Below are positions 17,737 through 63,703 of a stretch of DNA of 64,000 nucleotides, piece by piece (position 1 is the stretch's first letter; every line of letters starts with the position of its first letter). Under the pieces are notes generated by a model that searched no databases, was not told the origin of the DNA, and worked only from the letters and a program-made list of their open reading frames with translations. The translations under genes and the position numbers were made by a program. Source of the DNA: Owenia fusiformis (Eukaryota; Annelida; Polychaeta; Sabellida; Oweniidae); contig CAIIXF020000008.1 of assembly GCA_903813345.2 (NCBI GenBank), forward strand, positions 2,427,341-2,491,340. Direction: 5' to 3'.

Positions 17737-18524
17737 AATGACATTGTCATGTATTATTTAGCAGAAGGTACCATTTGCATATTGAATTCATGTCTGATGT
17801 ACTGATATATCTCTAAGGCCATAGACTGACATTGTCATGTATTATTTAGTAGAAGGGACCATCTGCATATTGAATTCATGTCTGATGTACTGATATATCT
17901 CTAAGGCCATAGACTGACATTGTCATGTATTATTTAGCAGAAGGGACCATCTGCATATTGAATTCATGTCTGATGTACTGGTATATCTCTGAGGCCATAG
18001 ACTGACATTGTCATGTATTATTTAGTAGAAGGGACCATCTGCATATTGAATTCATGTCTGATGTACTGGTATATCTCTAAGGCCATAGACTGACATTGTC
18101 ATGTCTTATTTAGTAGAAGGGACCATCTGCATATTGAATTCATGTCTGATGTACTGGTATATCTCTAAGGCCATAGGCTGACATTGTCATGTATTATTTA
18201 GTAGAAGGGACCATCTGCATATTGAATTCATGTCTGATGTACTGGTATATCTCTAAGGCCATAGACTGACATTGTCATGTCTTATTTAGTAGAAGGGACC
18301 ATCTGCATATTGAATTCATGTCTGATGTACTGGTATATCTCTAAGGCCATAGACTGACATTGTCATGTATTATTTAGCAGAAGGGACCATCTGCATATTG
18401 AATTCATGTCTGATGTACTGGTATATCTCTAAGGCCATAGACTGACATTGTCATGTATTATTTAGCAGAAGGGACCATCTGCATATTGAATTCATGTCTG
18501 ATGTACTGGTATATCTCTAAGGCC
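17737..18524. repeat. 88-bp tandem array derived from the FANCM stop exon
   Basis: About nine copies of an 88-bp unit, each with ATTGAATTCATGTCTGATGT and GGGACCATCTGCAT, run head to tail. The copy at the high-coordinate end (18458-18524) is the real end of the minus-strand FANCM coding exon, including codons for IYQYIRHEFNMQMVPSAK and the stop. The others repeat that coding segment and stop downstream of it. Copies differ by only a few bases. Confidence 0.92.
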
Positions 18525-21839: not shown

Positions 21840-22525
21840 GTGAGACATTTAAAAACGGCTGCCAGGAGGTTGAGGCTAGACGATGATACTATTGATGCGC
21901 TCTTTGCAGACTCTGAGAGTGACAATGACAGTGATTCTGAAATTGAATTTTTCAATGATGATGATCAGTTTGATGTAGATCGCATTCAGCCCAATTTAGA
22001 TGGAAAACCAGGAGCTAATCTAGGTATTTATACAATTTTTCTTGAAATGAAAGTAAAATTATTGGTTGTGCTATTGCTTCTGTCCCAAAGTGTATGTTTT
22101 TTTCGCAACATTTGACATACATGTAACATATTCTAAATAAAAAAATAGTTAGTTAGCTGTTTGTAATGCATATGATTGAGACTGGCAGTTGTATGATAAT
22201 ATGCAACCAGATGATGTGCCTGGATCGGAGATTTCAATCCACCTGCTAGGCGAGGTGTGCTGATAGATACAGGGGACTTTGACCCAGTTGATTACTTCAA
22301 AATCTTCTGGCCAGATAATTTAGTTCAGTTAATATCTGATGAGACAAACAACTACGCGTTCTCTTATTTTGATGGACCAGATGTGTTTGAAAATCTGCCA
22401 CCAAGGTCAAGATTTAGAGACTGGACAGAAATAAATCCAGAGGAAATCTTGAAATTTACTGCTTTACAGTTAAGCCTGAGTATGCCAGCTGAAGTCGATT
22501 ATTGGACCATAGGTTGTTGGCTGAT
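21840..22525 (+). pseudogene. piggyBac-type transposase, N-terminal part, cut by gap
   Basis: piggyBac transposases excise and insert DNA with an RNase H-like DDD core. Two blocks are visible. 21840-22022 has an acidic N-terminus (DDDTIDALFADSESDNDSDSE) ending at a possible donor. 22215-22525 has DPVDYFKIFWPDNLVQLISDE followed by a segment typical of the domain before the catalytic core (INPEEILKFTALQLSLSMP). The frame then enters the 500-N gap, so the catalytic residues are unseen. A CTGTAGATTTTAGCCCC end at 21733 after TA may be its left terminus or that of an older MITE. Called pseudogene because incomplete; the real state depends on the gap. Confidence 0.6.
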
Positions 22526-23025
22526 NNNNNNNNNNNNNNNNNNNNNNNNNNNNNNNNNNNNNNNNNNNNNNNNNNNNNNNNNNNNNNNNNNNNNNNNNNN
22601 NNNNNNNNNNNNNNNNNNNNNNNNNNNNNNNNNNNNNNNNNNNNNNNNNNNNNNNNNNNNNNNNNNNNNNNNNNNNNNNNNNNNNNNNNNNNNNNNNNNN
22701 NNNNNNNNNNNNNNNNNNNNNNNNNNNNNNNNNNNNNNNNNNNNNNNNNNNNNNNNNNNNNNNNNNNNNNNNNNNNNNNNNNNNNNNNNNNNNNNNNNNN
22801 NNNNNNNNNNNNNNNNNNNNNNNNNNNNNNNNNNNNNNNNNNNNNNNNNNNNNNNNNNNNNNNNNNNNNNNNNNNNNNNNNNNNNNNNNNNNNNNNNNNN
22901 NNNNNNNNNNNNNNNNNNNNNNNNNNNNNNNNNNNNNNNNNNNNNNNNNNNNNNNNNNNNNNNNNNNNNNNNNNNNNNNNNNNNNNNNNNNNNNNNNNNN
23001 NNNNNNNNNNNNNNNNNNNNNNNNN
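22526..23025. other. assembly gap, 500 N
   Basis: Exactly 500 N, the same length as the other two gaps in the window, hence a placeholder of unknown true size. It cuts the piggyBac-like frame. Confidence 0.98.
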
Positions 23026-27634: not shown

Positions 27635-30600
27635 ATGCCATACAGAGGATACCATCCGAGTCGACTTCAAAATGCTGTTCAGGGTTACAAGGCCGGTATG
27701 TCACTTGCCGAATCCAGTGAAATATTCGGTGTGCCAAAATCAACCATTCATGACTATGGGACAGGCCGCATGGCATTTGGTGCTTCGCCCGGTAGAAAGC
27801 CAATACTCCCAGATCACTTAGAGCATAAATTAGTAGACTGGGCCTGTAATCTGGCCGACCTAGGAATAGGCATTAGCAGGGCATGCTTTATAGAAAGGGC
27901 TGGTGAGTTAGCCAAGAAATACAACGTCGCCATTGGGAAAAATGGACTGTCTGACAAATGGTGGCGAGGCTTTAAAAACAGGCATCCAAACATCAGCCTT
28001 TTGAAGCCTGAGCCAACTGCAGGTATTAACTCAGTTGGCAAATATAAGGATAGTATTCACTCCCCGATTCTGCCTGAGTTGCTTTTAACCCTAGCCTATG
28101 ACATCCATGTTCTGTTAACTTTGTAAACTTAAGACAACACGTGTTATTTTATGTTCTATTATTATAATAAAACATCTAACTATGGATTATCTGCAACATT
28201 TTTGTCACACGATGGCTATAAGCACCCTCCCTGTACACGAACGGCATAAACGGGGCTTGAATACTATATCAGTGAAAATGGCTCATCACCGCTTCTTCTA
28301 TTTGCCAAATATTGAAAATAAACAATTATCGTTTTAACTAATCAATATCAATAGGCATATACCTTATTTATCTAAGTCGTCAAAACTATAAATGCAAGTT
28401 GAAAAGATAAATTGTCACATAACATTTTACCATGTAAGTTGCAACATAATTATTAATTCAACTGAGAAAAATGATTTATATGTGCATGATGTAATGTAAT
28501 GGAAAATTCAAAACGTTTAATTTTTTATTCATAGATTGTAAAGGAGTAAACAAAGCGCTAAAATAATAAGAAAAATATATTGTCAATCATTTTATAATCA
28601 TTTTTACGACAACACGTTTACAAATAGCTCGAGGAAAAGTTCTTTGTTAAGATACACATGAAATTAAGATGCAACATTCTTACATCATCATTATGTGAAT
28701 ATGTATTGTACATATACATTTTAAGTGTAAATAAAGATAGATTTAAAATTATAGGTAAAATGCATACCTTGTTTGTTGCAGCGAACCGACACAGACAAAT
28801 GGACTTCAGAACGGTCAAGTATTACTTTGACGACTTGGACCACATAATGACATATTTCAATATGCACGATGACCCCAGCAGATTATGGAATGCAGATGAG
28901 ACTGGGTTCTGCCTCAGCCACAAGTTCGTGAAAGTGATTGCACGGAAAGGCACCAAGTCCCTCCAAGGAAGGACCAGTTCTAACAAGGACAACGTATGAT
29001 TTTTGCATTGTGTCAAACTTATTAATAAATTCTTCTTTTAAACTGTCTATAAGATTTCAAATCACAAACGTTAAGATGGTCCTATATGGGTACTCTTTCA
29101 ATGATTAAAATTATGTCTCCTCTCTCATACCTCTTTTCAAATATGAATTGTATGTATGAATCTTTCGATCTGATGCCAAGATCGTACACGTAATGAGATT
29201 TTTAAAAGTTAATTATTATTCTAATGGCAGAGCGAGATACACTGTATAAGATATGCAACATTGCAAGAAACATGCCCGACCAACCTACCAATATATTGTT
29301 CACCGTCTCAAACATAATGGAGAGGTTAAGCTTTGCATATATAATCGAAACTGAACCTGTACGTATCACTCGACCATATACAAATTCATGTAGCCTTCTC
29401 ATATAAATAGCCGTTCAAATCCAGTGTTTGTTTAGACTACACCATAGCGTGTAATGATTCTATAGTATGTCATTGATGCGGTTTTATAGCTTTCTAATAC
29501 ATATTTTAAACGAGCTCGTTTCGTAAGATTTTTGGCGCTAAATCATGCATGACATACATCATCGTGTTCAGCAAGAATTCAACTGTGCATCGAAATCAAA
29601 ATTGACAGCATAGTGTTCAATAGACACGAGTAAAATGGTTCCCGTTGACCAAACGTCAAATTTCAAATCTCCCGTTCCAAACCCGAAACTCTGAAGCTGA
29701 ACGAGTATCTGAAGTAGACTAAGCGCGCATAAAACTATGAGCGCTCGATACATTCCTTTGTTAATTTTTGTACTTTGCGTTCACGGTTACGTTGTGAAAA
29801 ACATCGTTAGCTTAACCTCTCCATTATCTCCAAAACGAGAGGATAATTTGGAAATCCACATTCATAGATCAAAACCATGAAATAAAGGGAATGAAAGGAA
29901 TTAAAAAAAAGAAATAGGCTTATCAAGAATGATATGAGCCGAAATCATTAAATTGAGGCATTTTGTAAAAATTCAGATCGATCGATATAATTCTGTTTTA
30001 TAATCGCAGTTAGTGCTAAATCTCTGGAGCAAGACAAGCCCATTAAAGGGCATTGTATATAAAAGGGATAGATCTTTAAATCTAATTTCTCACTCAGAAT
30101 TTGTCGTTGTTTCTTTTTAGTTTAAATAAAGTATATAAATCTTGCATTATTGACTATTGTTTGAATAAGCATGAACTTCATTGCGTTTAATTTCATACTA
30201 ACAATGTAATCTCATCGTATCGTATCATCAGATTTTTCTTTCCATGTTTTCACTCAAAAGTAGATTTTTATCCTTTTCTGAGAACTTTGACATGTCTGGC
30301 TACGGCCATGCCTAGTGGAGCAAACATTTGAGAAATGATTAGCCATAATTCGAATTTTAATTCTACTCAAATCGCCGATATGACCATATGAAAAACGTTT
30401 TACAAACGTTTTTACGTATTTTCCCTATTATATCATTTACTTTTTAAAGGATCGAGGGAAGGTTATAACATTGCAATTGTGATTGTAGGTCACGTGCATG
30501 GCCTTCGGAAGTGCAAGTGGAGCAGTGGGGCCGCCACACCTCATCTTCAAGGGAGTCACGATGAAGGCTCTTGATAGCGTTGACACCACCTATGCCCCTA

Positions 30601-32483
30601 TCGGATGCCGGTTTTCAGTGTCAGAGACTGGATGGTCGAATCGTGAAATAGGTCTGTTGTGGTTCAGAGGGGCCTTCCTTCCTACCATCGGGGAAAAACG
30701 TCCGGTTCTGCTGATACTTGATGGGCATGACTCCCACCTGACAAAAGACGTGGCAGAATATGGGTTTGAGAATGGCGTGATAATCATTATTTTGCCACCT
30801 CACACGACTCACTATTTGCAGCAACTGGATCGAACAGTCTTTGGCTCATCTAAGAAGAACTGGGACAGCGAGTGTTCGAAATACACAAGAGAAACACCAG
30901 GTGTTCCAGTAGGCAGGAGCAATTTTTGCCAAATATTTGCTAAAGTTTGGGAGAAATCCGTAACGTCTGAAAATATAATCAGTGGCTTTCGAGCAACTGG
31001 GGTGTACCCATTTAACCCCGATGCAATTCCAAAAGCTGCCTATTTACCATCTTCGCTTGAGAATGAGGTCGCACCTACTCGCATGACAAAACCAGTAAAT
31101 CCTGCAGATTGTTGCCATCCAAAATATGTTTCTACATCTACTACTTCAACTGTCGTTTCACAATCCACCGTACGTCCTACCACTTCCAAAGATATATCTA
31201 CTGCTTCAACTGTCGTTTCACAATCCACCGTACGTCCTTCCACTTCCAAAGATATATCTACTGCTTCAACTGTTGCTACACAATCCATCGTACGTCCCAG
31301 CACTTCAAAAGATATATCTACTGCTTCAACTGTTGCTACACAATCGAACGTAGGTCCCAGCACTTCAAAAGATACTGACCTGGCAGATGATAGAATATGT
31401 CCAAGCGCTACGAGTGCCCTGGCAGACATCCCTGTGATTGATACCACAACCATTGCCTCTGCTTCAATTGTGAGACCGACTGCTTCTTCTTCATCGGATG
31501 TATCACTAGAATCACCATTTGACAGCATGGACATCGAAAGTCTTCCCACAGATGTGTCTTTAACGACCTCATGTCCTCCGAAAATGGCACTGAAGACACT
31601 TGAAGATGCTATTGGCCCAAAGGATCTTAAATTATACAAGAGGAGGGAAGCTGCAGGTTTCAGGTCCTCCGTAGATGCAACATACGCGACATGGCTCAAA
31701 CTGAAAGAAAGCATTCCCGATGAACTGGAAAATGGAAAATGGCCGTTTATGAATACATCTTCCCCCACCGATGAAGATAGTGATATCCTCAAATATCCAA
31801 AGAAGTCATCCAAAACATCAAATGAAACGCGCAAACATTTCATCATTACCAATGCTGACTATATAGAAGCAAAAAGAAGAAAAGAAGAGCAGAAGTTCCA
31901 ACTTAATCTAGAAAAAGAACAGAGGAAAGATGAAAGACTTAAGAAAAAAGAAGAGAAAGAAAATGGAAGAAAACACAAGCTAAAATCATTGGTAACTGAC
32001 AAAAGAACGATTCACGGAAAACCAGGTATGAAAAGAGCAATAAACAAAAATGTACTTCTCATGTATTTAAAGATCAGGGCCCCTGTAATAAACAATCAAA
32101 TTCTCTCACACCTCTTAAAGTCATTAGGGGCATAGCAATGATCCTAAGAGTTTTTGATAGGTGAGCCAAAGTGAGATGAATATCTGAATTATTTTTCTAA
32201 TGGTTGATACTGCCTCGTCTGCATTCCTTGCTAGGCCTACATCCTTGTTTATAACGTGAAAACTTGACCATGTCAAGTCACTGAATATTTCAATCCTCAG
32301 ATCGCGTCTTCTTAGAAATGTTTAAGAGATGAATAGAATCATGTATGTGGATATTGATATCAATTAATATTTGTTACAGAGGCAACAGTGACAACAGCGC
32401 CAGTAACAGTAGAACCAGTGCCACAAATTGAAGAACTAGAAAGACACCTAAGTGAACGGAATATATTTGAAGACTTTCTCTAA
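27635..32483 (+). CDS. Tigger/pogo-like transposase, four exons
   Basis: Exons 27635-28022, 28782-28993, 30489-32025 and 32380-32483 join in phase to 746 residues plus stop. Exon 1 has a psq-like helix-turn-helix (SRLQNAVQGYKAGMSLAESS...VPKSTIHDY) and a CENP-B-type second helix domain ending WWRGFKNRHPNISLLKPEP. The DDE_1 core carries all three acidic positions: WNADETG in exon 2, LDGHDSH and HYLQQLD in exon 3. The catalytic cut-and-paste enzyme therefore looks complete. The C-terminal third is a Ser/Thr-rich linker with four 20-residue repeats (DNA 31133-31370), then a Lys/Glu-rich probable coiled coil (about 31860-31990). If exon 3 were read through at 32025 the protein would end at 32135 instead. 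No inactivating lesion was seen. Confidence 0.85.
31133..31370 (+). repeat. 60-bp coding tandem repeat, four copies
   Basis: Four in-frame copies of a 60-bp unit encode a Ser/Thr-rich 20-residue repeat (core TASTVVSQSTVRPSTSKDIS) in the transposase linker. The period is a multiple of three, so the frame is kept. Confidence 0.9.
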
Positions 32484-40986: not shown

Positions 40987-41025
40987 GTAAGAGTCTAAAG
41001 TATTGCATATGTCCACATATTGCAT

Positions 41026-41525
41026 NNNNNNNNNNNNNNNNNNNNNNNNNNNNNNNNNNNNNNNNNNNNNNNNNNNNNNNNNNNNNNNNNNNNNNNNNNN
41101 NNNNNNNNNNNNNNNNNNNNNNNNNNNNNNNNNNNNNNNNNNNNNNNNNNNNNNNNNNNNNNNNNNNNNNNNNNNNNNNNNNNNNNNNNNNNNNNNNNNN
41201 NNNNNNNNNNNNNNNNNNNNNNNNNNNNNNNNNNNNNNNNNNNNNNNNNNNNNNNNNNNNNNNNNNNNNNNNNNNNNNNNNNNNNNNNNNNNNNNNNNNN
41301 NNNNNNNNNNNNNNNNNNNNNNNNNNNNNNNNNNNNNNNNNNNNNNNNNNNNNNNNNNNNNNNNNNNNNNNNNNNNNNNNNNNNNNNNNNNNNNNNNNNN
41401 NNNNNNNNNNNNNNNNNNNNNNNNNNNNNNNNNNNNNNNNNNNNNNNNNNNNNNNNNNNNNNNNNNNNNNNNNNNNNNNNNNNNNNNNNNNNNNNNNNNN
41501 NNNNNNNNNNNNNNNNNNNNNNNNN
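41026..41525. other. assembly gap, 500 N
   Basis: Placeholder gap of unknown true size. It probably hides the remaining ACBP exons (+ strand) and the last exon of the SnoaL-like gene (- strand). Confidence 0.98.
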
Positions 41526-41544
41526 TTTTTTTTAAGTTTGGTTT

Positions 41545-44839: not shown

Positions 44840-45356
44840 CCGAAGTCACAATCATCATTGTCCGGTGAAATTATATTCATCCGCCATTTCCTGTTTATAG
44901 CCATTAGATTATGTGAAGGAATCATCAAAATGTAACCAAAATACTCAAAATCGGAGACAACTTGGAGATGTTACATCTTAGTCTACTGTCATTTTGAATC
45001 TGTTGCAAGATCTAAATTTTATTTTAAATACTTCTCCCTTACACTGTTACACTGTTATCTGGCTGTATTGCAGTGTAATATTTCAATTTTTTATATGAGG
45101 TTGTCATTTTGTCAAAAGTGCCATGTCGCATGTCCTCTTTTTCAATTTTATTCAATTTAAATGAATATAAACATTTCTGCATCTTGAATCTCTTGAATGG
45201 CACTCAACTGATAAACACAAAATGGTGGAATGTACACATTTTGCTCTTTATCAATTTGAGGGGGGGGGGAGGCTTGGTTATACTTTTATTGTTGAATTGA
45301 CAATAAAAATTTAAAAATTAAAAAATTTATAAGGTCTTTGTTGTAGGTATGGTTTT

Positions 45357-45693
45357 AGTAGATATAAAATGTCAGGTTCTGGCTCGCCACGGGCCGCCAC
45401 GGGCCCGGGGCTTTCAAAATCTCTGAAGATGAGCAGGAGATATAGATGAGCAGAAGATAAATTAATTGGATGGGGATTAGGAGATAAGTTAATTGGATGG
45501 GGCTTTCATCTTAAATGTGTAAAAATGTTAGATAAGATGCGCATGACATCATTGTTATCTTAAATGGGTGAGAGATAAGATGCGCATGACATCATTGTTA
45601 TCTTAAATGGGTGAGAGATAAGATGCGCATGACATCATTGTTATCTTAAATGGGTGAGAGATAAGATGCGCATGACATCATTGTTATCTTAAA
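45357..45693. repeat. left terminal inverted repeat with four 43-bp iterons
   Basis: A GC-rich outer part (GCCACGGGCCGCCACGGGCC) is followed by ATTAATTGGATGGGG repeats and four tandem copies of a 43-bp unit with AGATAAGATGCGCATGACAT and CATTGTTATCTT. The inverted counterpart at 49537-49829 matches almost base for base but has one fewer iteron. Confidence 0.93.
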
Positions 45694-46156
45694 TGGGTGA
45701 GAAATGTATTTCTTGGACTGAATAGTTAAGTACAAAATAAATCCCTTATATATATTTTAAATTTGGTATAATCCATTAACAGTGTTTACAATTCTACTTT
45801 CAATATTAACCCAACATTGAAAAGAATCAATAATCCTATTGAGTTGGTCAAACAAATACTGTTCGCATAAAAGGAAAGAGAACTGGATTTTGGATTAAAT
45901 ATGTGTACAGATGAAAAGGTTTATTTATTTAAGTCATATATTGAATTGACCGTTGAAAAGGTTTATTTATTTAAGTCCTATATTGACCATTTGATCTTAC
46001 TATACTTGATTTCAACAATAATGGTATTTTAATGTAATAATTGAATGTTGACATTTAATTGTGTCATCACAATGTTAATCCTTCATATTCTAGAACATCT
46101 TTTGTTTACAGTGTTAATCCCCCTTTTCAAAAACAGATTATAGCGATGAGTCATTA

Positions 46157-46179
46157 TTCTGGAAGGTTCCAGAAGTTTG
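46157..46179. promoter_or_regulatory. heat-shock element, copy 1
   Basis: TTCTGGAAGGTTCCAGAA comprises four consecutive perfect inverted pentamers (TTC-GAA-TTC-GAA), followed by an imperfect fifth (TTG). This is the consensus bound by trimeric HSF1. A two-box TTCTAGAA lies at 46088-46095. Confidence 0.8.
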
Positions 46180-46337
46180 ACAGAAAAATCTATTGAATGT
46201 ATCTTAATTTTAATGTAATAATTGAATGTTGACATTTAATTGTGTCATCACAATGTTAATCCTTCATATTCTAGAACATCTTTTGTTTACAGTGTTAATC
46301 CCCTTTTTCAAAAACAGATTATAGCGATGAGTCATTA

Positions 46338-46360
46338 TTCTGGAAGGTTCCAGAAGTTTG
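46338..46360. promoter_or_regulatory. heat-shock element, copy 2
   Basis: Identical four-box element in the second 181-bp copy, about 190 bp upstream of a TATATAT at about 46526 and 260 bp upstream of the first ORF. A second TTCTAGAA is at 46269-46276. Confidence 0.8.
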
Positions 46361-46600
46361 ACAGAAAAATCTATTGAATGTATCTTAAGAATATAAATAA
46401 TCTTTCAACTTTCTAATCTGGAATGGTCAATAACAACAAGAACTACATTAATTCACGACATCAGTTTCTAAGAATATCACGACATCAGATGTTGATAAGA
46501 AGTTGATATTGATGCCACTTGACAATATATATTGAGTGAAATATTCAAATCGTTATCATTTCAATCCTCATACTTGATATATACACATCAACTAAAAACC

Positions 46601-46975
46601 ATGAAACTAGTACCATATGTAGACAACCCAGAACATTGGTTGAAACTTATTCGAGCTGGGAGACAGAATAGATTGAAAGTATCTCAAACAGGAAGAGGGT
46701 GGATAGGCATAGATGACATTAAAGAAGATACTAAACCGGTACAAATCATTTCACCCATGACTGCAGTTGTCGACAGAGCAAAGGCACAATTGAAACGTCA
46801 ACATGAAGATATGAAATATGAAGAGTATAGACCATCTAAAGAGAAACAACAAAACTCTGTAAATATAAAGAAGAAACATTCATTTAAACAGAAAAAACAA
46901 AACACTTCGAATACAAGAAAGAAACGGACATTCTTATACAAACCACCTGGTATCCCAGCAAGGATGGACGATTAA
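46601..46975 (+). CDS. small basic protein of the Polinton-like element, 124 aa
   Basis: I do not recognise a family with certainty. The start at 46601 (ACCATGA) is preferred to an upstream in-frame ATG at 46532 because it lies about 75 bp after the TATATAT box. The N-terminal part has DNPEHWLKLIRAGRQNRLKV and a GRGWIGID segment. The C-terminal half is very rich in Lys, Gln and Asn with several KKK/KRK clusters, so it is probably DNA-binding and nuclear. It lies 0.9 kb before the ATPase on the same strand. A role as a core-type DNA-condensing or packaging accessory protein is inference. Confidence 0.7.
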   Translation: MKLVPYVDNPEHWLKLIRAGRQNRLKVSQTGRGWIGIDDIKEDTKPVQIISPMTAVVDRAKAQLKRQHEDMKYEEYRPSKEKQQNSVNIKKKHSFKQKKQNTSNTRKKRTFLYKPPGIPARMDD

Positions 46976-47089
46976 AGTTATTTGTATATAATACTGAATG
47001 ATATGAATAAAAATAAATAACTAAAGTTTCAAATGTTGTTTGCTATTTACAGTCATTTACAAATGGTTTGAATATGTATGAACATTAGT

Positions 47090-47785
47090 TAGCATTACCT
47101 CATTAGCATCTGTTAGCATTATCATTAGCATATGTTAGCATTATCATTAGCATCTGTTAGCATTACCATTAGCATCTGTTAGCATCATCATTAGCATATG
47201 TTAGCATCTGTTAGCATTAGCATTAGTATCTGTTAGCATTAGCATTAGCATATGTTAGCATCTGTTAGCATTAGCATTAGTATCTGTTAGCATTAGCATA
47301 AGCATCTGTTAGCATCATCATTAGCATATGTTAGCAACTGTTAGCATTAACATTAGCATCTGTTAGCATTACCATTAGCATCTGTTAGCATCATCATTAG
47401 CATATGTTAGCATCTGTTAGCATTAGCATTAGTATCTGTTAGCATTAGCATTAGCATCTGTTAGCATCATCATTAGCATATGTTAGCATCTGTTAGCATT
47501 AGCATTAGCATCTGTTAGCATTACCATTAGCATCTGTTAGCATCATCATTAGCATATGTTAGCATCTGTTAGCATCAGCATCTGTTAGCATTAGCATTAG
47601 TATCTGTTAGCATTAGCATTAGCATCTGTTAGCATTACCATTAGCATCTATTAGCATTAGCATCTGTTAGCACGTGTTAGCATTAGCATTAGTATCTGTT
47701 AGCATTAGCATTAGCATCTGTTAGCATTACTTAGCATTACCATTAGCATCTATTAGCATTAGCATCTGTTAGCATACATTTAAAT
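47090..47785. repeat. TTAGCA-based satellite, ~700 bp
   Basis: There are dozens of TTAGCATCTG, TTAGCATTAG and TTAGCATATG units in higher-order blocks between the two ORFs of the element. All units derive from the hexamer TTAGCA with spacers of multiples of about six. Confidence 0.92.
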
Positions 47786-47877
47786 TAGCATTCTTGAACA
47801 TGCCTTTGAACACATATACATAACAGAATGAAATTATGAATTGCATCCATTTTGTTATCAGTCTTTGAGGCGGTAAC

Positions 47878-49428
47878 ATGTATTACTGTCATTGTGGTAA
47901 AGAATTTAGACATGCTTCAAGTTTAGCGAGACACAAAGGCATGCACTCTGCACTAGGTAAAGAAGACATACATGTAGGTATGGACAAAGTGTTGCATCAC
48001 CCCTTTACCATGTTGGTCACTGGTCCCACAGGCTGTGGGAAAACTACCTTTGTCAAGCAACTTTTGGAAAATGTAGAGCAACGCATCCAACCCCCTCCAC
48101 AGCGTATTATCTGGTGTTTTGGACAATGGCAACCACTTTACATAGAGATTAAGAACACACATCCTGGAATAGAATTCATGATGGGAATTCCAGATGAATT
48201 AAACAGTCCAGATTTCTTAAATCCTAGAGTGCGTAATTTAATGATTGTTGATGACTTGATGTCAGATGCTACCAAAGACAGGAAGATCTCTGATTTGTTT
48301 ACTAAAGGGAGTCATCACAGAAACCTGAGTGTAATCTGTTTACTGCAGAATATCTTCCATCATGGAAGGGAGAATCGAACCATCAGCTTGAATACACATT
48401 ACATTGTATTGTACAAGAATCCAAGAGATCAAAACCAAGTAAGAGTACTTTCTCAGCAGATGTATCCTGGGAACAGTCACAAACTCTTAGATGCTTATAA
48501 TGCAGCTACTCTAAAACCATATGGGCATTTACTGATTGATCTAAAGCAAGAAACCCCAGAGCATTTAAGACTGTGTTATGATAAGACTCATCAAACAATG
48601 AATGAGCATGATAGTAGTCATCTAAAGGGAGAACCATTGACTAAGACAGTACAATCCAATGACATAGCACTACCATATGATTTGAATTCTAATGAAAACC
48701 CATTTAAAGAGATGTCACAGTATGATACTTCAATAATGAAACCTCCATATCAGTTCACTGCGAGTATAAAAGATACTATCCCCAGCAACGTTATACATTC
48801 TGACAACAAAAATTACAACATGAAAGAAATATGTCATTGTGACTATTGTGGCGTCATGTTAATATCAAGAATGGATCTACAGAATCATATCCAAAACTGT
48901 CCATTGAATGAGGATATAGACGACCCTCCAATGAAGAAGCTATGCACTGAAGGGTTTCAGGAAAACCCTGTGTATATACGGCTAAAGGATAAAGCTATTA
49001 ATAAATTTAAAGATCAAATTGAAGAACAAGAGGCAAAATATATAGACAAACAGAAGGGGAATTCTGAGTATGATAGAAGATATATGGCGAATCAAAAATT
49101 CCTACCCAAAATAAGAGAAACGTTTAAGACATACTACAAGTATTTAGTTGAAGATTTACTAGATTTACAATGTAGTCCAACACATAAAGAAATCATGGTA
49201 GACATCCAGCAATTAATGAGTACAGGCATACCGTTTGAAGATGCTTTTAAGAAGACCATGTTACACCACAACTATATGACAGAAGACATTATTAATGTAG
49301 GACTTTATGATGATGCAAATGTTTCAGATGAATCGTATACTGACTCTAGTGACAATGACGAAGCTAGTGAATCTAGTGATAATGAATCTGATGACACCAA
49401 TGATTCTGCTAGTGATAATAAGGATTAA
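47878..49428 (+). CDS. packaging-type ATPase with N-terminal zinc finger, 516 aa
   Basis: The protein begins with a C2H2-like finger (YCHCGKEFRHASSLARHKGMH, residues 3-23). It continues as a P-loop ATPase of the A32/FtsK-HerA type that pumps DNA into virions in Polintons and large DNA viruses: Walker A GPTGCGKTTF at 49-58, Walker B LMIVDDLM at 121-128, then SHHRNLSVICLLQN with a sensor-like polar residue. A second finger of C2HC type (CHCDYCGVMLISRMDLQNH) lies near residues 319-341. A charged linker and an Asp/Ser-rich acidic tail end the protein. The frame is uninterrupted, so the protein looks functional. It is the only recognisable Polinton core gene in the element. Confidence 0.85.
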   Translation: MYYCHCGKEFRHASSLARHKGMHSALGKEDIHVGMDKVLHHPFTMLVTGPTGCGKTTFVKQLLENVEQRIQPPPQRIIWCFGQWQPLYIEIKNTHPGIEFMMGIPDELNSPDFLNPRVRNLMIVDDLMSDATKDRKISDLFTKGSHHRNLSVICLLQNIFHHGRENRTISLNTHYIVLYKNPRDQNQVRVLSQQMYPGNSHKLLDAYNAATLKPYGHLLIDLKQETPEHLRLCYDKTHQTMNEHDSSHLKGEPLTKTVQSNDIALPYDLNSNENPFKEMSQYDTSIMKPPYQFTASIKDTIPSNVIHSDNKNYNMKEICHCDYCGVMLISRMDLQNHIQNCPLNEDIDDPPMKKLCTEGFQENPVYIRLKDKAINKFKDQIEEQEAKYIDKQKGNSEYDRRYMANQKFLPKIRETFKTYYKYLVEDLLDLQCSPTHKEIMVDIQQLMSTGIPFEDAFKKTMLHHNYMTEDIINVGLYDDANVSDESYTDSSDNDEASESSDNESDDTNDSASDNKD

Positions 49429-49536
49429 TTAGATTATGTGGTACTTTTGTTTGTAAAATAAATGCAAATAAATTAAACAATATTGTACATTAATTTTTTC
49501 TCAGTTATTTGATGTAGTAATTTGATGTAGTGATTT

Positions 49537-49829
49537 TTAAGATAACAATGATGTCATGCGCATCTTATCTCTCACCCATTTAAGATAACAATGATGTCAT
49601 GCGCATCTTATCTCTCACCCATTTAAGATAACAATGATGTCATGCGCATCTTATCTAACATTTTTACACATTTAAGATGAAAGCCCCATCCAATTAACTT
49701 ATCTCCTAATCCCCATCCAATTAATTTATCTTCTGCTCATCTATATCTCCTGCTCATCTTCAGAGATTTTGAAAGCCCCGGGCCCGTGGCGGCCCGTGGC
49801 GAGCCAGAACCTGACATTTTATATCTACT
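49537..49829. repeat. right terminal inverted repeat with three 43-bp iterons
   Basis: Inverse of 45357-45693. Three iterons (AAGATAACAATGATGTCATG, then GCGCATCTTATCT) are followed by the GC-rich terminal block and the CT terminus. Confidence 0.93.
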
Positions 49830-50556
49830 GGTTTTGTTCCATTTTCATCAAAATTGAGACTCTGTGGGTGTTAAACTCAGATTTAAGTAATCATTTATTT
49901 ATTAATCATTTATCAAAAAACATTGGGAGATACACATCATTGCAGAAGTGATTGAGTTAAGTTCCTGTGTGAACTCAAATGACTGTCAATGTTTCACCTT
50001 GCAAATTATCAGTTTACTCTGTATTACATTTGACGTGAGAAATCTTAGCAACAAGCTAGTAAGAAAACTGTTCATACATGAAAATTTATTTAACATTTGA
50101 TAAAAGAAATGTTTGTTTTTAAATTTGAAATAAATTATTCCTTGCTTCTATTGTAATGATCTCTATAATAAGACCACTGTCAAATGAACATTTTTTTCTT
50201 TTATCTTGGAATTAAGAAATTTAGATTTTGTTGATTTTTTTAATTTTGGATATGTATCACCACCAAGAAGTGGGATCATAATGTTAAAGCCACTATTTTT
50301 GGAACTGATGTTTGGCATCTTTATTGGTATTCCTTATCTTTGTAAATGCTTATTTGTAGGTAAATTTCAACCTGGCGATAGAAGTAGTAATAAAACTTGT
50401 AAATGGCATTTTATTGTTGTGTAATAATATATAATGCCTTGTTTGCACGAAGTTAAGTTGTACTTGTATATGTTGTAAGTAACTTATGTATCCTGTTACT
50501 GATATCAAATATATAAACAAGATATGTATTAATCATGAAAATATGACTATTTAATA

Positions 50557-58700: not shown

Positions 58701-60459
58701 CCAAGATATTTATTCTGAACTTCTAACATGAAAAGAAAGTAGCAGCCATATATGGTATATTTTTAGGAAAGAACCTGACAGAAAACCCCAACAAACAATC
58801 ATTATTCTTTCTTTTCAATCAAAGCATTATTCAGTTTCACATGTATATAAAATCCTAACAAAAATTCTTTTTGTAAACTTTTCCACACCATAATTATTTT
58901 TCAATCCACACAAATAATCACATCAAAATTCAAAATGGGGATGTTACAACATGACATGTATTTATATAAAATCCTAATTAATCATATGAAATTTTGTTTA
59001 ATCACTTCACTTCTAAACAACACTTAACTACAGAATCAGTTTCTTTAAGATGTGTAAATGTGAAATGTGAAGAATAAAAAATGAAAAACAAAGAATTAGA
59101 CAATAAGAGTGCATATCATACCATATTATCTCAATAAACACCTCAATAGAAAGATAAAGCTTGCAAAATGTAAAACAGAATTAAGGTAGGCAGTAGAGCC
59201 ATTTTTGATTGATTTACACATGTAAGTATGCAAAAGCTCAAAGCCAACCTTAAGAGAGAGGAATGGAACACTTCAAGAATGCCAAAGCAACAAAACCTTA
59301 AGTGTTTTTTGAGACAATGTGGTACTTTAGGATGCACTCGTTCAAATCAGGTGTAAACTCTATATAAGCTTACCTGTCTTACTGCTCCTAAGGGGGGTCT
59401 TCTTAGACTAACACCAGATGGTGAAATGGACTGGAAGTAGACATTGAGTCAATGAAACGAATATGCGGAGGTGTCTCATGGGAAGTATCTCTTTTCATTT
59501 AATTAGAGGTTGAGAATTAAACCACAATTTCATTTCCAATCTTTTCACAATCTTAAATGGACATTCATGCCCAAGAATTAGTTCAATTACTCTTATTGTG
59601 CTTACTGTTCGTGGTGATCTTTCTATATTGAGGGCACTCTCAAGCATCTCCATATATCCCACGCAAGTCTTCAACAAAATCTTCATCCTCTTGATGATCT
59701 CTGTTAGTTTTGTCTTTGACTGTAGGCTAGCAGCATCAGCATTGGTGGTTGAGATGAGCTGATCTGCAGCATCTTTCAAGGATAGGACCCTACCCTGGGA
59801 CTGTTCAAGCTCACCTTTCATTTCCTGTAATATACAATGGATTAAATACTTTACTAGAGCATTTTGTAGGGTTTCATTATTTAGGTTTCCTTTCTGTCTG
59901 ATAACAAGTTATCTTCAAAATTTGTATTTTGAGCTTGTATTTTGTCAGGCAATAAAGTCGATCACCAAAAATATATTGATTCAGAGACAAGAATGATAGG
60001 CCTTTACTGAAGACTATAAGAGATTTCCAGAATTGGACAACTGGCACCTCTTTCCACAATCTGTAGCTGTATCTTAATACAAACTAAAATTGGATAATTC
60101 TCTCCACACACTACAAAACTTTAAAGTACCTTGAATTTAGAGTATTTAAGCTGAAGTATGTCCTTTTTATCCTTAACATCAACGGGTTCACATAGTTTTA
60201 TTTTTGTCTCCACCCCCTCAAGCCACAATGACAGGTCCCTGATGGTTCTGTGAAAGTCCCGACACTGCATCAATGCCATCTGCAGCCTCTTCTGCCAGCT
60301 TGTTGTCTTCCCGCACACAGCCTCCCAGCGTGTGTTCATCACCACCAGCCTCTCTTTGAGATCGTGGCAAATGGGAGTATCGATGCGAGTGAACTGCTCT
60401 CCAAGGAGATTAATTGACAAAACACGGGTCTTGTATTTATCAAGTTGGATGAGAAATTC
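55714..60459 (-). CDS. nesprin/SYNE-type protein, last five exons with KASH domain
   Basis: Nesprins span the outer nuclear membrane and link SUN proteins to the cytoskeleton. Five exons splice in phase: 60459-60130 and 59824-59606 (helical spectrin-like repeats, e.g. [35 protein letters not shown]), 59430-59374 ([17 protein letters not shown]), 58450-58380, and 55924-55714. The last encodes the KASH domain: [13 protein letters not shown], a membrane helix [15 protein letters not shown], then the lumenal peptide with [18 protein letters not shown] ending TPPI. The lumenal Cys sits where vertebrate KASH peptides form a disulfide with SUN. About 295 residues are visible; the rest lies beyond the 60526 gap. 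It is SYNE1/2-like, but the exact paralogue cannot be decided. Confidence 0.92.
56580..57300. repeat. degenerate TACTGTA-rich tandem repeat in a nesprin intron
   Basis: Units built from TACTGTAGTACACCACCTAT, ATACTGTAGTTCACTGCCTA and ACTACATCTCCTATTTACTG recur many times with a period near 30 bp, in the intron before the KASH exon. Confidence 0.85.
57770..58230. repeat. degenerate ~30-bp tandem repeat in a nesprin intron
   Basis: Copies of AGGCACACAAGGGTACC / GGTGGCACTGAATACTG follow one another for about 460 bp in the same intron. A spurious 78-codon frame runs through it. Confidence 0.85.
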
Positions 60460-60525
60460 CTGCAAAAGTAAAACATATTTTTACATCAATGTCTAGAAAA
60501 TGTGTCCATAAGTCTCCAATTTTGG

Positions 60526-61025
60526 NNNNNNNNNNNNNNNNNNNNNNNNNNNNNNNNNNNNNNNNNNNNNNNNNNNNNNNNNNNNNNNNNNNNNNNNNNN
60601 NNNNNNNNNNNNNNNNNNNNNNNNNNNNNNNNNNNNNNNNNNNNNNNNNNNNNNNNNNNNNNNNNNNNNNNNNNNNNNNNNNNNNNNNNNNNNNNNNNNN
60701 NNNNNNNNNNNNNNNNNNNNNNNNNNNNNNNNNNNNNNNNNNNNNNNNNNNNNNNNNNNNNNNNNNNNNNNNNNNNNNNNNNNNNNNNNNNNNNNNNNNN
60801 NNNNNNNNNNNNNNNNNNNNNNNNNNNNNNNNNNNNNNNNNNNNNNNNNNNNNNNNNNNNNNNNNNNNNNNNNNNNNNNNNNNNNNNNNNNNNNNNNNNN
60901 NNNNNNNNNNNNNNNNNNNNNNNNNNNNNNNNNNNNNNNNNNNNNNNNNNNNNNNNNNNNNNNNNNNNNNNNNNNNNNNNNNNNNNNNNNNNNNNNNNNN
61001 NNNNNNNNNNNNNNNNNNNNNNNNN
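60526..61025. other. assembly gap, 500 N
   Basis: Placeholder gap. It separates the nesprin 3' exons from the rest of that gene and from the transposase remnant on its right. Confidence 0.98.
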
Positions 61026-61716
61026 ATGTCAAATGAAAGAAGAGCATGGGCATCTCTTGAAAATAAACAATTGAAGGATCACTTTAGTGAATATCTAGAG
61101 AAAAAAGATTTGCCCTGTTCAAAAAATCAAAGATCAAGCTAATATTTTGAACTCAAGAGACCCTGGAGTTGGTGAAAAGTCATTCCATCATGTGTTGTAT
61201 TAAGAATCAGGCAGACATTCCCAGATCAGAATGGCCAGTATGTTGGGTTCATTCCCAATGAGCACAGGCCGGTATCGAAAAATTTACTTACTTCATGTAA
61301 TGGATATATCAATTGCGGGCAACTTTAACTTATGTTTGAAGTCCAACAACACTGATAGTAAAAGTAATTGAAAACAGCGCCGGAGTATCATACTCCAAAA
61401 TGTAATTGTCTGCAATTGTCCTGAGGTCATTCTCATACACGCTATCGTTGTCGTACCCCCACAAGTAGGTACAATTTTTGACAATGTGTGCAGGTTTGTG
61501 GCCACTGGGACATGTTCTTCAAAGTGCTGTAACATTGATGTAAGTATCAATCTGATGGTCATGCAATGTATTTGGCTAGTATGAAATTGAATCTTGTACA
61601 TATGTGTAAAATATCATGGAGTTATAGAGTGACAAAGATATGAGGATAATGGTGTAAAGGTTTCTGTTTTTTGACCACCTTGAATGTGTGTTTCTTGCAT
61701 CTAACCATATTTCTAG

Positions 61717-62381: not shown

Positions 62382-62964
62382 CAGTAAGTAATGGGGATCC
62401 CTCTGTAAACAACTTTTGGAGAGTAAAAATTGCTAATTATAAGAAATTATTCTCTTTCCATTTTATGGGGGATTATAGTGGTAATTACTCCCAATTTTGT
62501 TTTGTGCCTTCACCCAAAATATATTATTACTTCCTCAAATATGATATTTGGTATAAGTATACTGTGAAATAAATAAATTTCATAATTTTAAATTCATTTA
62601 AGCCCACCTGATTTGAAAATGAAAGCCACCTTTTTTGTCACAGTAAAACTAAAGCAACAATATCAACTTTAGTCAATTTCAAATCAGAATTAAATCAATG
62701 CACCATGTAATTTTCTATAAAATTCAACTATGAGGATTATATTTCATGTATGACATAATTACTTATACAATATCCGGAGAGGTGGTGTACACCACGTAGT
62801 AGGGAAACATCGATGGCTAGTGCCATAATTATAATGTAAGTTTATACATAAATAAGGATTATTCTACAATTCAATATGTTATTTTTACAGAAATGTTTAA
62901 TTGTCTTCACTGATAGATTATTTTTCCATGAAATAAAGCATGCAACATTTTTACTGCATTTTAG

Positions 62965-63198
62965 GCATTGATCAATTCTATGGAAAAGGAGGTCCTTGTT
63001 GATACCCTCTTGAAGATTGTAAAGAAGTATCCGTCATTAATCTTTGACATTATCAGCACCAATGAGCCTGAGCCGGAGAGACCACCCAATGACCATATGA
63101 ACTTTCACTGCTCATGTCTCAATTGCCGAAATATGCCGACAGACATTGAAAACCTTTGTTGTGGGAACCAGCCAGAGAACTGCCTCTCAACAAGAGCT
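62965..63198 (+). CDS. P2X7-C-like zinc-binding exon, copy 1
   Basis: A 78-codon exon bounded by CATTTTAG and GTAAGT. It encodes LVDTLLKIVKKYPSLIFDI, an acidic spacer, then HCSCLNCRNMPTDIENLCC ... PENCLST. The C-x-C-x2-C ... CC ... C arrangement is that of the P2X7 receptor cytoplasmic C-terminal domain. In many invertebrates this domain occurs alone or in transposon-linked proteins, not in ion channels. The transposase remnant just upstream favours the latter. Membrane helices of a P2X channel are absent. Confidence 0.65.
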
Positions 63199-63229
63199 GT
63201 AAGTTTATGGCATTTTTACTGCATTTTAG

Positions 63230-63463
63230 GCAATGATCAATTCTATGGAAAAGGAGGACCTTGTTGATACCCTCTTGAAGGTTGTAAAGAAGTATCCATC
63301 ATTAATCTTTGACATTATCAGCACCAATGAGCCTGAGCCGGAGAGACCACCCAATGACCATATGAACTTTCACTGCTCATGTCTCAATTGCCGAAATATG
63401 CCGACAGACATTGAAAACCTTTGTTGTGGGAACCAGCCAGAGAACTGCCTCTCAACAAGAGCT
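63230..63463 (+). CDS. P2X7-C-like exon, copy 2
   Basis: Tandem copy at a 265-bp period. The protein is nearly identical (one conservative change and the start Met variant AMINSM). It is separated from copy 1 by only 31 bp, from GTAAGT to the next TTTTAG, which is too short for normal animal splicing. Copies 1 and 2 therefore cannot both be joined in one mRNA by that intron. Confidence 0.6.
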
Positions 63464-63494
63464 GTAAGTTTATGGCATTTTTACTGCATTTTAG

Positions 63495-63703
63495 GCATTG
63501 ATCAATTCTATGGAAAAGGAGGACCTTGTTGATACCCTCTTGAAGGTTGTAAAGAAGTATCCATCCTTAATCTTTGAGATTGTAAGCACCAATGACCCTG
63601 AACCAGAGAGACCACACGATAACCGGATGAACTTTAAATGCCAACAGACATCGAGAACCTTTGTTGTGAGAACTCGCCAGAGAACTGCCTCTCTACAAGA
63701 GCT
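63495..63703 (+). pseudogene. P2X7-C-like exon, copy 3, with deletion
   Basis: Third copy of the 265-bp unit. After MNF, deletions of 23 bp and 2 bp remove the first cysteines (HCSCLNC region) and shift the frame. The remaining DNA could still code ENLCC...PENCLST only in another frame. It is more diverged than copies 1 and 2. Confidence 0.6.

What the first reader, a model, noticed from the sequence alone, without database searches (positions are those of the whole stretch)
45357..49829. Mini-Polinton that keeps only the DNA-packaging motor
Seen: exact inverted termini (AG...CT), an exact GGTTTT 6-bp target duplication, and just two ORFs, one an intact A32/FtsK-type ATPase with Walker A and B. 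Known: Polintons normally also encode PolB, integrase, protease and capsid proteins in 15-20 kb. Inference: this is a satellite that borrows replication and integration from a helper Polinton or adintovirus but brings its own packaging ATPase, which could favour its encapsidation. A defective mobile element that specifically preserves the motor, with a zinc finger fused to it, is not something I know as a described class.
Basis: partly seen in the sequence, partly recalled or inferred. Interest (0 to 1): 0.88.

Follow-up and report, generated by a model that had tools for sequence, protein, structure and literature searches.

The report
Two-gene satellite Polintons in an annelid
A marine worm's genome carries many small virus-like mobile elements that have lost almost everything except a DNA-packaging motor and one small partner gene, and seem to borrow the rest from larger relatives with the same ends.

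Summary
In detail: a 4,473-bp element with perfect 294-nt inverted ends, a 6-bp target duplication (GGTTTT) and two ORFs. The host is probably Owenia fusiformis. It is not a one-off deletion: nine such copies (3.9-4.5 kb) sit at nine sites with different exact 6-bp duplications, each with an open 516-aa ATPase frame. Their ends are shared with a 14.5-kb Polinton-like element (integrase, protease, ATPase, polymerase candidate), 8-kb elements and near-perfect palindromes; three terminal variants recur across these classes, yet both ends agree in 21 of 22 elements. No ATPase outside the family is more than 49% identical over near full length among the loci scored. The second ORF is a Polinton gene seen elsewhere in this genome. 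Three further two-gene (ATPase + ORF1) families have other ends, and gene orders differ. Of 83 ATPase loci examined, 44 have ORF1 beside them and no detected capsid candidate, integrase or polymerase candidate nearby. Best reading: satellites mobilised by helper Polintons that keep their own packaging pair. Packaging itself is inferred. The zinc-finger fusion is ordinary. I found no description in the open papers searched.

The parts
45351..45356 (.). left copy of the 6-bp target-site duplication GGTTTT
45357..45650 (+). left terminal inverted repeat, 294 nt, perfect
   Evidence: outer 34 nt identical to L031, L032, L049 and the 14.5-kb element L046/L047
45530..45702 (+). 43-bp iterons, 4.0 copies
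45357..46120 (+). left-end module shared (about 84-96% by stretch) with 8-kb elements and palindromes; the 14.5-kb element shares only the inverted repeat and a 74% patch upstream of its polymerase-candidate frame
46026..46388 (+). 181-bp tandem duplication, 99%
46208..46307 (+). rest of the shared left-end module (about 93-95%)
46601..46975 (+). ORF1, 124 aa, basic C-terminal half; 86% protein identity to the 14.5-kb element's ORF1 over 65 N-terminal codons
47088..47775 (+). TTAGCAT-rich tandem array between the ORFs; the stretch between the ORFs varies in length between copies
47878..49428 (+). packaging-type ATPase, 516 aa: C2H2 - A32/FtsK-type ATPase - second zinc-finger-like motif - acidic tail
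48022..48045 (+). Walker A motif GPTGCGKT (residues 49-56)
   Evidence: sequence; G54 and K55 invariant in 33 sequences
48238..48255 (+). Walker B motif LMIVDD (residues 121-126)
   Evidence: sequence; D125 and D126 nearly invariant
48838..48900 (+). second zinc-finger-like motif (C321, C324, H337, C341)
49536..49829 (-). right terminal inverted repeat, 294 nt
49536..49656 (-). 43-bp iterons, 2.8 copies
49830..49835 (.). right copy of GGTTTT

Best explanation
The element is one copy of a satellite (non-autonomous) Polinton family. It borrows replication and integrase from a helper Polinton with the same ends (the 14.5-kb class C is a candidate), and it makes its own two-part packaging kit: the A32/FtsK-type ATPase and the basic protein ORF1. 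When a helper is active, satellite DNA is copied and its ends are homogenised. It is integrated with 6-bp duplications, and I infer that the ATPase-ORF1 pair loads satellite DNA into capsids built from helper proteins. Shown here: mobility, shared and exchanged ends, open frames, absence of other recognised genes in the elements read, recurrence in four families. Inferred: helper dependence, protein-primed replication, the roles of ATPase and ORF1, and packaging. My estimate is about 0.85 for 'trans-mobilised satellite family' (lowered from 0.9 because the helper's polymerase is identified by motifs only) and 0.45-0.5 for the packaging role.
For: (1) Nine copies, 3,933-4,473 bp, nine different exact 6-bp duplications; ATPase frame open in 9 of 9. 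(2) Ends shared with a 14.5-kb element holding a polymerase candidate (open frame 1287 aa), integrase, ATPase, a 448-aa capsid candidate and protease (L046/L047), and with 8-kb elements. Three terminal variants recur across classes while both ends agree in 21 of 22 elements, as expected if the classes replicate by one machinery. (3) No ATPase outside the family exceeds 49% identity over near full length; partial matches reach 63% (83 of 252 candidates scored). So it is not a fresh deletion of a Polinton found there. (4) The same pair occurs in three other families: L054/L055 (5.5-5.8 kb), L056 (7,551 bp), L057 (5,078 bp), each with own ends and exact duplications, convergent or ATPase-then-ORF1, no other recognised gene. 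(5) 44 of 83 ATPase loci have ORF1 within 2.5 kb, no match to the capsid candidate or integrase within 12 kb, none to the polymerase candidate within 15 kb. (6) ATPase omega 0.27 (dS 0.54) between families M1 and M2, with no capsid-candidate match within 12 kb of their scored loci. (7) A 14.3-kb element with ORF1, capsid-candidate and integrase matches has M1-type ends (94% and 79%).
Against: Palindromic relatives with ORF1 only (4 fetched, arms 1.8-2.9 kb) or without ORF1 and ATPase (3 fetched) are mobile with the same ends, so an own ATPase is not needed in cis for mobility. ATPase constraint among the nine copies is weak. ORF1 of the two M1 copies shows no constraint (2 synonymous, 8 nonsynonymous changes). 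No particle, transcript or biochemical evidence. The polymerase candidate has no Pfam, PHROG, NCBIfam or solved-structure match to a polymerase; its label rests on motifs recognised by eye (motif knowledge recalled). The 448-aa capsid candidate has no Pfam, NCBIfam or solved-structure match and only weak PHROG matches (best E 0.0054, unknown function). ORF1 has no relative of known function. Absence of other genes at most of the 44 loci rests on searches with one lineage's proteins, and the 83 loci are those most like the window's ATPase; I read 9 + 4 elements in full.
Confidence: 0.5

Rival explanations
1. Passive non-autonomous derivatives: the ends alone are enough for mobilisation, and the two ORFs are leftovers that have not yet decayed.
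For: Relatives without the ATPase are mobile; weak constraint on the ATPase among the nine copies; no constraint on ORF1 between the two M1 copies; non-autonomous elements with shared ends are common in other transposons (recalled).
Against: Same two genes in four families and three gene orders; ORF1 omega 0.11-0.23 in the window family; ATPase omega 0.27 between M1 and M2; the family's ATPase is not that of any full Polinton scored here.
Confidence: 0.22
2. Interference: the divergent ATPase and ORF1 poison or compete with helper packaging, so the element limits its helper and persists partly by sparing the host, rather than by packaging itself.
For: ATPase far from the 14.5-kb element's (45%) while the ORF1 N-terminus is close (86%); Polinton-like viruses that reduce other viruses are reported (PMC12945077 title, PMC12220804 start of abstract: listings only).
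Against: Copies move and keep exact ends, so they appear to profit from helper replication and integration.
Confidence: 0.16
3. The pair acts on the element's own DNA outside packaging, for example partition or nuclear delivery of an extrachromosomal copy.
For: FtsK/HerA-type ATPases also move DNA in cells (general knowledge); both proteins could bind DNA (zinc fingers; basic ORF1 tail).
Against: The best family match is Pox_A32, known as a viral packaging ATPase (recalled); elsewhere here ORF1 sits directly upstream of the capsid candidate at 33 of 72 loci with a match of 900 bases or more.
Confidence: 0.08
4. The element is one segment of a split (multipartite) virus genome, complementary to the 8-kb class.
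For: Classes share a left-end module and ends and differ in gene content.
Against: The 8-kb and 14.5-kb classes already carry an ATPase and ORF1, so the segment would be redundant.
Confidence: 0.04

Closest known systems
Polinton/Maverick (polintovirus)
   Same: AG...CT ends, long inverted repeats, 6-bp duplications, A32/FtsK-type ATPase related to the ATPases of larger elements here
   Different: no recognised polymerase, integrase, protease or capsid gene; 3.9-7.6 kb instead of 15-20 kb. Krupovic et al. 2014 (PMC4028283, passages) report that 9 Polintons without the capsid gene also lacked ATPase and protease, i.e. concerted loss; here the ATPase is kept
Non-autonomous DNA transposons
   Same: share ends with a coding partner and lack its integrase
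   Different: keep two open virion-type genes, in several families
Phage satellites that redirect packaging (PICI, P4, recalled; PICMI PMC10803314 and Mulch/Flayer PMC10690885, starts of abstracts in the listing)
   Same: small and, on this reading, helper-dependent, with own genes thought to steer DNA into helper particles
   Different: bacterial; unrelated packaging proteins (recalled); helper packaging is established there (recalled), not here
Virophages and transpovirons
   Same: small DNA elements dependent on a larger DNA virus
   Different: virophages encode their own capsid (recalled), which these elements lack; transpoviron gene content not compared
Tlr elements of Tetrahymena
   Same: Polinton-related elements once proposed to be non-autonomous derivatives (passage in PMC4028283)
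   Different: they encode capsid proteins and integrase (same passages)

Membership tests
Polinton/Maverick, autonomous | inverted ends AG...CT and 6-bp target duplication | tested here: met
Polinton/Maverick, autonomous | packaging-type ATPase | tested here: met
Polinton/Maverick, autonomous | protein-primed PolB | tested here: not met
   only two ORFs of 80 aa or more; no polymerase-candidate match within 15 kb of the ATPase
Polinton/Maverick, autonomous | RVE integrase | tested here: not met
Polinton/Maverick, autonomous | protease, major and minor capsid proteins | tested here: not met
   ORF list; no capsid-candidate match within 12 kb; protease and penton candidates not searched genome-wide
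Non-autonomous Polinton (satellite) | ends shared with a larger coding element in the same genome | tested here: met
   outer 34 nt identical to L046/L047; that element's polymerase is a motif-based call
Non-autonomous Polinton (satellite) | multiple copies at different sites | tested here: met
   9 copies, 9 different duplications
Non-autonomous Polinton (satellite) | moved in trans by the partner's proteins | not testable with these tools
   inferred from shared ends and missing enzymes
Packaging-redirecting satellite (PICI-like in function) | own packaging gene kept under selection | tested here: inconclusive
   open in 9 of 9; weak within the family, clear between M1 and M2
Packaging-redirecting satellite (PICI-like in function) | satellite DNA found in helper particles | not testable with these tools
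   needs particle sequencing
Virophage | own major capsid protein | tested here: not met

The most novel reading that the evidence does not exclude
Animal genomes host a recurrent class of satellite viruses whose minimal genome is a packaging motor plus one partner protein: the eukaryotic counterpart of phage satellites that redirect packaging. They carry the pair in three gene orders, share or exchange their helpers' ends, and in this genome outnumber capsid-bearing Polintons among the ATPase loci examined.
Probability: 0.4. Interest if true: 0.92.

Novelty: new variant of a known kind. Interest (0 to 1): 0.8.

Why it matters
Polintons are thought to be viruses, but how they interact with parasites of their own is hardly known (my general knowledge). 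A class that drops replication, integration and capsid genes yet keeps the packaging ATPase and ORF1 points to ORF1 as an unrecognised packaging partner and gives a testable satellite/helper system in one sequenced animal. It runs against the concerted loss of capsid, protease and ATPase reported for nine degraded Polintons (PMC4028283, passages). It also suggests that terminal homogenisation and palindrome formation, expected of protein-primed replication, leave traces in the genome.

Tried and rejected
Unique internal deletion copy: rejected (nine copies, no parental ATPase among the loci scored). Zinc-finger fusion as the oddity: rejected. Assembly artefact: unlikely (exact duplications at 22 of 22 delimited elements). 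Recent derivation from the 14.5-kb element: rejected for the ATPase (45%, synonymous sites saturated) and for ORF1 (dS 0.74). Single versus multiple origin of the two-gene families: unresolved. Holding them as one clade is not rejected (p-AU 0.282), and L060, an ATPase with a capsid-candidate match 2.4 kb away, groups among them. ATPase+INT loci without a capsid match looked at first like another partial class; 13 of 14 have a polymerase-candidate match nearby, so they are probably full Polintons with a capsid gene too distant for my query. Viral contigs gave no relative. ORF1 function: no Pfam, PHROG or solved-structure lead; its only database hit was from Owenia. A helper for family M3 was not found (40 of 114 candidates scored). 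Pfam PF03175 in the own genome could not be run. No genomic context could be obtained for the database relatives, so spread outside Owenia is untested.
Full report
OBSERVATION. The window element spans 45357-49829 (4,473 bp). Its arms are 294 nt and perfectly complementary, and it is flanked by GGTTTT on both sides. It carries 43-bp iterons at both ends and two ATG-started ORFs of 80 aa or more: ORF1 (124 aa) and a 516-aa ATPase with a Pox_A32 match (E 1e-9).

HOST. The window lies in G000:C8:2427341-2491340, a 498-Mb assembly of 525 contigs. The only database hit of ORF1 is an Owenia fusiformis protein on a contig of 35,751,742 bases, the length of G000:C2. I take the host to be this annelid (taxonomy).

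A FAMILY, NOT A SINGLE COPY. The 294-nt end gives 46 matches in the genome (40 of 78 candidates scored). I delimited 22 elements with these ends. Nine carry ORF1 and the 516-aa ATPase (class A; 3,933-4,473 bp). Five are 8.0-8.5 kb (class B), one is 14.5 kb (class C), four are palindromes with ORF1 twice (class D), and three are palindromes without ORF1 or ATPase (class E; one holds two overlapping 84-aa ORFs). All 22 have an exact 6-bp duplication. The ATPase frame is open and 1,548 nt long in all nine A copies, whereas 747 of 1,225 alignment columns between the two ORFs hold a gap in some copy. The same script counted 370 gapped of 1,921 columns in the ATPase stretch. As the nine frames are equal in length, I think a duplicated 3' piece in L034 (a second match to residues 479-516) was misplaced by the aligner, but did not resolve it. 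A tenth, partial copy lies at C6:19885018 (94%; L053).

THE CANDIDATE HELPER. Class C (L046/L047) holds a polymerase candidate (open frame 1287 aa), a zinc-finger/A32 ATPase (571 aa) and a 365-aa integrase. It also holds a 138-aa frame (penton candidate), an ORF1 relative (118 aa), a 448-aa frame (capsid candidate) and a 148-aa protease. Pfam matches were obtained on class-B relatives: rve E 6.2e-12, Peptidase_C5 E 4.4e-5. The polymerase label rests on motifs I recognise in the frame (DANNLYG, NNSMFGK, DTDS; motif knowledge recalled). Pfam, PHROGs, NCBIfam and the solved structures give no polymerase match, only C2H2 fingers and an endonuclease VII-like stretch; the frame was searched in pieces, which lowers sensitivity. 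'Capsid' and 'penton' are labels by position and size: neither frame has a Pfam or NCBIfam match, the 448-aa frame has no solved-structure match, and its best PHROG match (E 0.0054) has no known function. Class B keeps these genes but has no polymerase-candidate ORF. Taking L044 as the B reference, class C is 99.6% identical in the capsid candidate, 95.6% in integrase and 92.4% in ATPase. C-type polymerase candidates occur at four loci (94-100%, one with a stop).

EXCHANGE OF ENDS. The outer 34 nt occur in three main variants, each found in several classes: one in A (3), B (1) and C; one in A (1), B (2), D (2) and E (1); one in A (2), B (2), D (2) and E (1). Four elements (3 A, 1 E) have variants of their own. 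In 21 of 22 elements both ends carry the same variant; L048 differs. Within-element homogenisation and between-class sharing fit co-replication by one protein-primed machinery; that machinery is inferred. Classes A, B, D and E also share a left-end module of up to about 0.95 kb, wholly or in part, of which class C has only the inverted repeat and a 74% patch upstream of the polymerase candidate. The palindromes have arms of 1.6-2.9 kb at 98-100%, like snap-back molecules of protein-primed viruses (recalled).

THE ATPASE IS NOT THE HELPER'S. A versus C ATPase: 45% identity over 464 aligned codons, synonymous sites saturated. ORF1, 65 N-terminal aligned codons: 86% identity, dS 0.74, omega 0.16. 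Among the loci scored no ATPase outside the family exceeds 49% over near full length; partial matches reach 51-63% (83 of 252 candidates scored). In a 41-row tree A has a branch of 1.14 changes per column and falls in a clade of nine rows (98/96) with the other two-gene families, one locus with a capsid candidate (L060) and one database protein.

RECURRENCE. Loci chosen for their ATPase similarity and ORF1 spacing gave three further two-gene families. M1: L054 (5,547 bp, GCACGC) and L055 (5,769 bp, AACCAA), ends AGTAGTATTATCCG, ATPase and ORF1 convergent. M2: L056 (C7:38958776-38966326, 7,551 bp, GTTTAC), convergent; paired ends enclose ATPase and ORF1 matches at 11 M2 loci by coordinates, in some of them with a partial or interrupted ATPase. 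M3: L057 (5,078 bp, TATAGC), ATPase then ORF1 on one strand. In family A ORF1 precedes the ATPase on the same strand. No other recognised gene lies inside the four M elements read; small unmatched ORFs occur in L054, L055, L056 and L057.

CENSUS. One search gave 85 matches; I merged two second segments, leaving 83 ATPase loci. These are the loci most like the window's ATPase, not a sample of all Polintons. With all 113 ORF1, 94 capsid-candidate, 128 integrase and 79 polymerase-candidate matches, 44 of 83 have ORF1 within 2.5 kb, no capsid candidate or integrase within 12 kb and no polymerase candidate within 15 kb. Of the rest, 9 have ORF1, capsid candidate and integrase; 13 capsid candidate and integrase; 2 capsid candidate only; 14 integrase only, of which 13 with a polymerase candidate; 1 none (run on part of the integrase and polymerase lists, gave the same counts). 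The four match lists are themselves incomplete: 131 of 131, 94 of 96, 112 of 625 and 49 of 129 candidates were scored. ORF1 directly precedes the capsid candidate at 33 of 72 loci with a match of 900 bases or more. Of the 113 ORF1 matches, 33 have neither neighbour; 14 of these are the ORF1 pairs of seven inverted-pair loci. For M1, a 14.3-kb element with ORF1, capsid-candidate and integrase matches has related ends (C9:19499336-19513642, 94% and 79%). No scored ATPase match fell inside it (78 of 260 candidates scored), nor a scored polymerase candidate.

SELECTION. ORF1, 16 sequences (8 A and 8 D; the 123-aa ORF1 of L038 left out): mean pN/pS 0.137; 13 synonymous to 8 nonsynonymous changes, P 6e-5 to 9e-4 over transition weights 1-4. 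ATPase, nine A copies: pN/pS 0.374; 19 synonymous to 31 nonsynonymous, P 0.0025 to 0.06; for changes shared by two or more copies 6 to 8, P 0.09-0.15. M1 versus M2: ATPase dS 0.54, omega 0.27; ORF1 omega 0.36-0.39. Between the two M1 copies ORF1 has 2 synonymous and 8 nonsynonymous changes, omega about 1.

MECHANISM. The elements lack recognised polymerase and integrase but move and keep helper-type ends, so I infer that replication and integration come in trans. They keep a packaging-type ATPase and a basic protein encoded elsewhere next to the capsid candidate, which suggests a packaging complex acting on satellite DNA. Against a need for the ATPase in cis, palindromes without it are mobile too. 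Integration does not require packaging, so the ATPase may matter only for spread between cells or hosts; this is inference.

KNOWN OR NEW. Seven library searches were run; six bear on novelty and one on phage satellites. No listed title or abstract start described a Polinton derivative of this kind. The phrases 'nonautonomous Polinton', 'non-autonomous Polinton', the same with 'Maverick', and 'mini-Polinton' occur in no held paper, and 'Polinton-derived' in three (listing only). Many subscription papers and Repbase reports are not held, so earlier description there cannot be excluded. PMC4028283 and PMC6431247 were seen as passages only; the others as listings. I rate it a new variant of a known kind: a satellite or non-autonomous Polinton with an unusual, recurrent gene content.

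Noticed in passing
L037, L039, L040, L041, L042, L033, L043: Near-perfect palindromic elements (arms 1.6-2.9 kb, 98-100%) with the family's ends and exact 6-bp duplications; four carry ORF1 twice in inverted orientation. One search shows seven such inverted ORF1 pairs.
   Followed up: partly
L036, L044, L045, L049, L050: 8-kb elements without the polymerase candidate but with integrase, protease, capsid candidate, ATPase and ORF1, close in these genes to the 14.5-kb element, yet with the satellites' left-end module.
   Followed up: partly
L046:4498-7600: Polymerase-candidate frame of the 14.5-kb element starts with C2H2 fingers and has an endonuclease VII-like stretch.
   Followed up: partly
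L044:4176-5270: Polinton integrase ends in a chromodomain.
   Followed up: no
G000:C10:22410347-22424082: Two M3-type ATPase-ORF1 pairs in inverted orientation between M3-type ends, a possible head-to-head double element.
   Followed up: no
G000:C5:23701973-23710971, C1:40898713-40902359: M3-type paired ends about 3.5 kb apart with no ORF1 or ATPase match inside; the C5 stretch holds two such pairs.
   Followed up: no
window 27635-32135: Pieces of a Tc5/pogo-like transposase (HTH_Tnp_Tc5, DDE_1).
   Followed up: no
window 14807-16396: Reverse transcriptase frame, E 5.7e-40.
   Followed up: no
window 60124-60465: Spectrin-repeat exon-like ORF (just under Pfam's cut-off), perhaps part of a host gene.
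   Followed up: no
window about 22520-23020, 41010-41540, 60510-61040: Stretches that read as N in the window (X runs; limits approximate).
   Followed up: no
window 17739-18524 and 62946-63635: Tandem arrays of 88-bp (8.9 copies) and 265-bp (2.6 copies) units.
   Followed up: no
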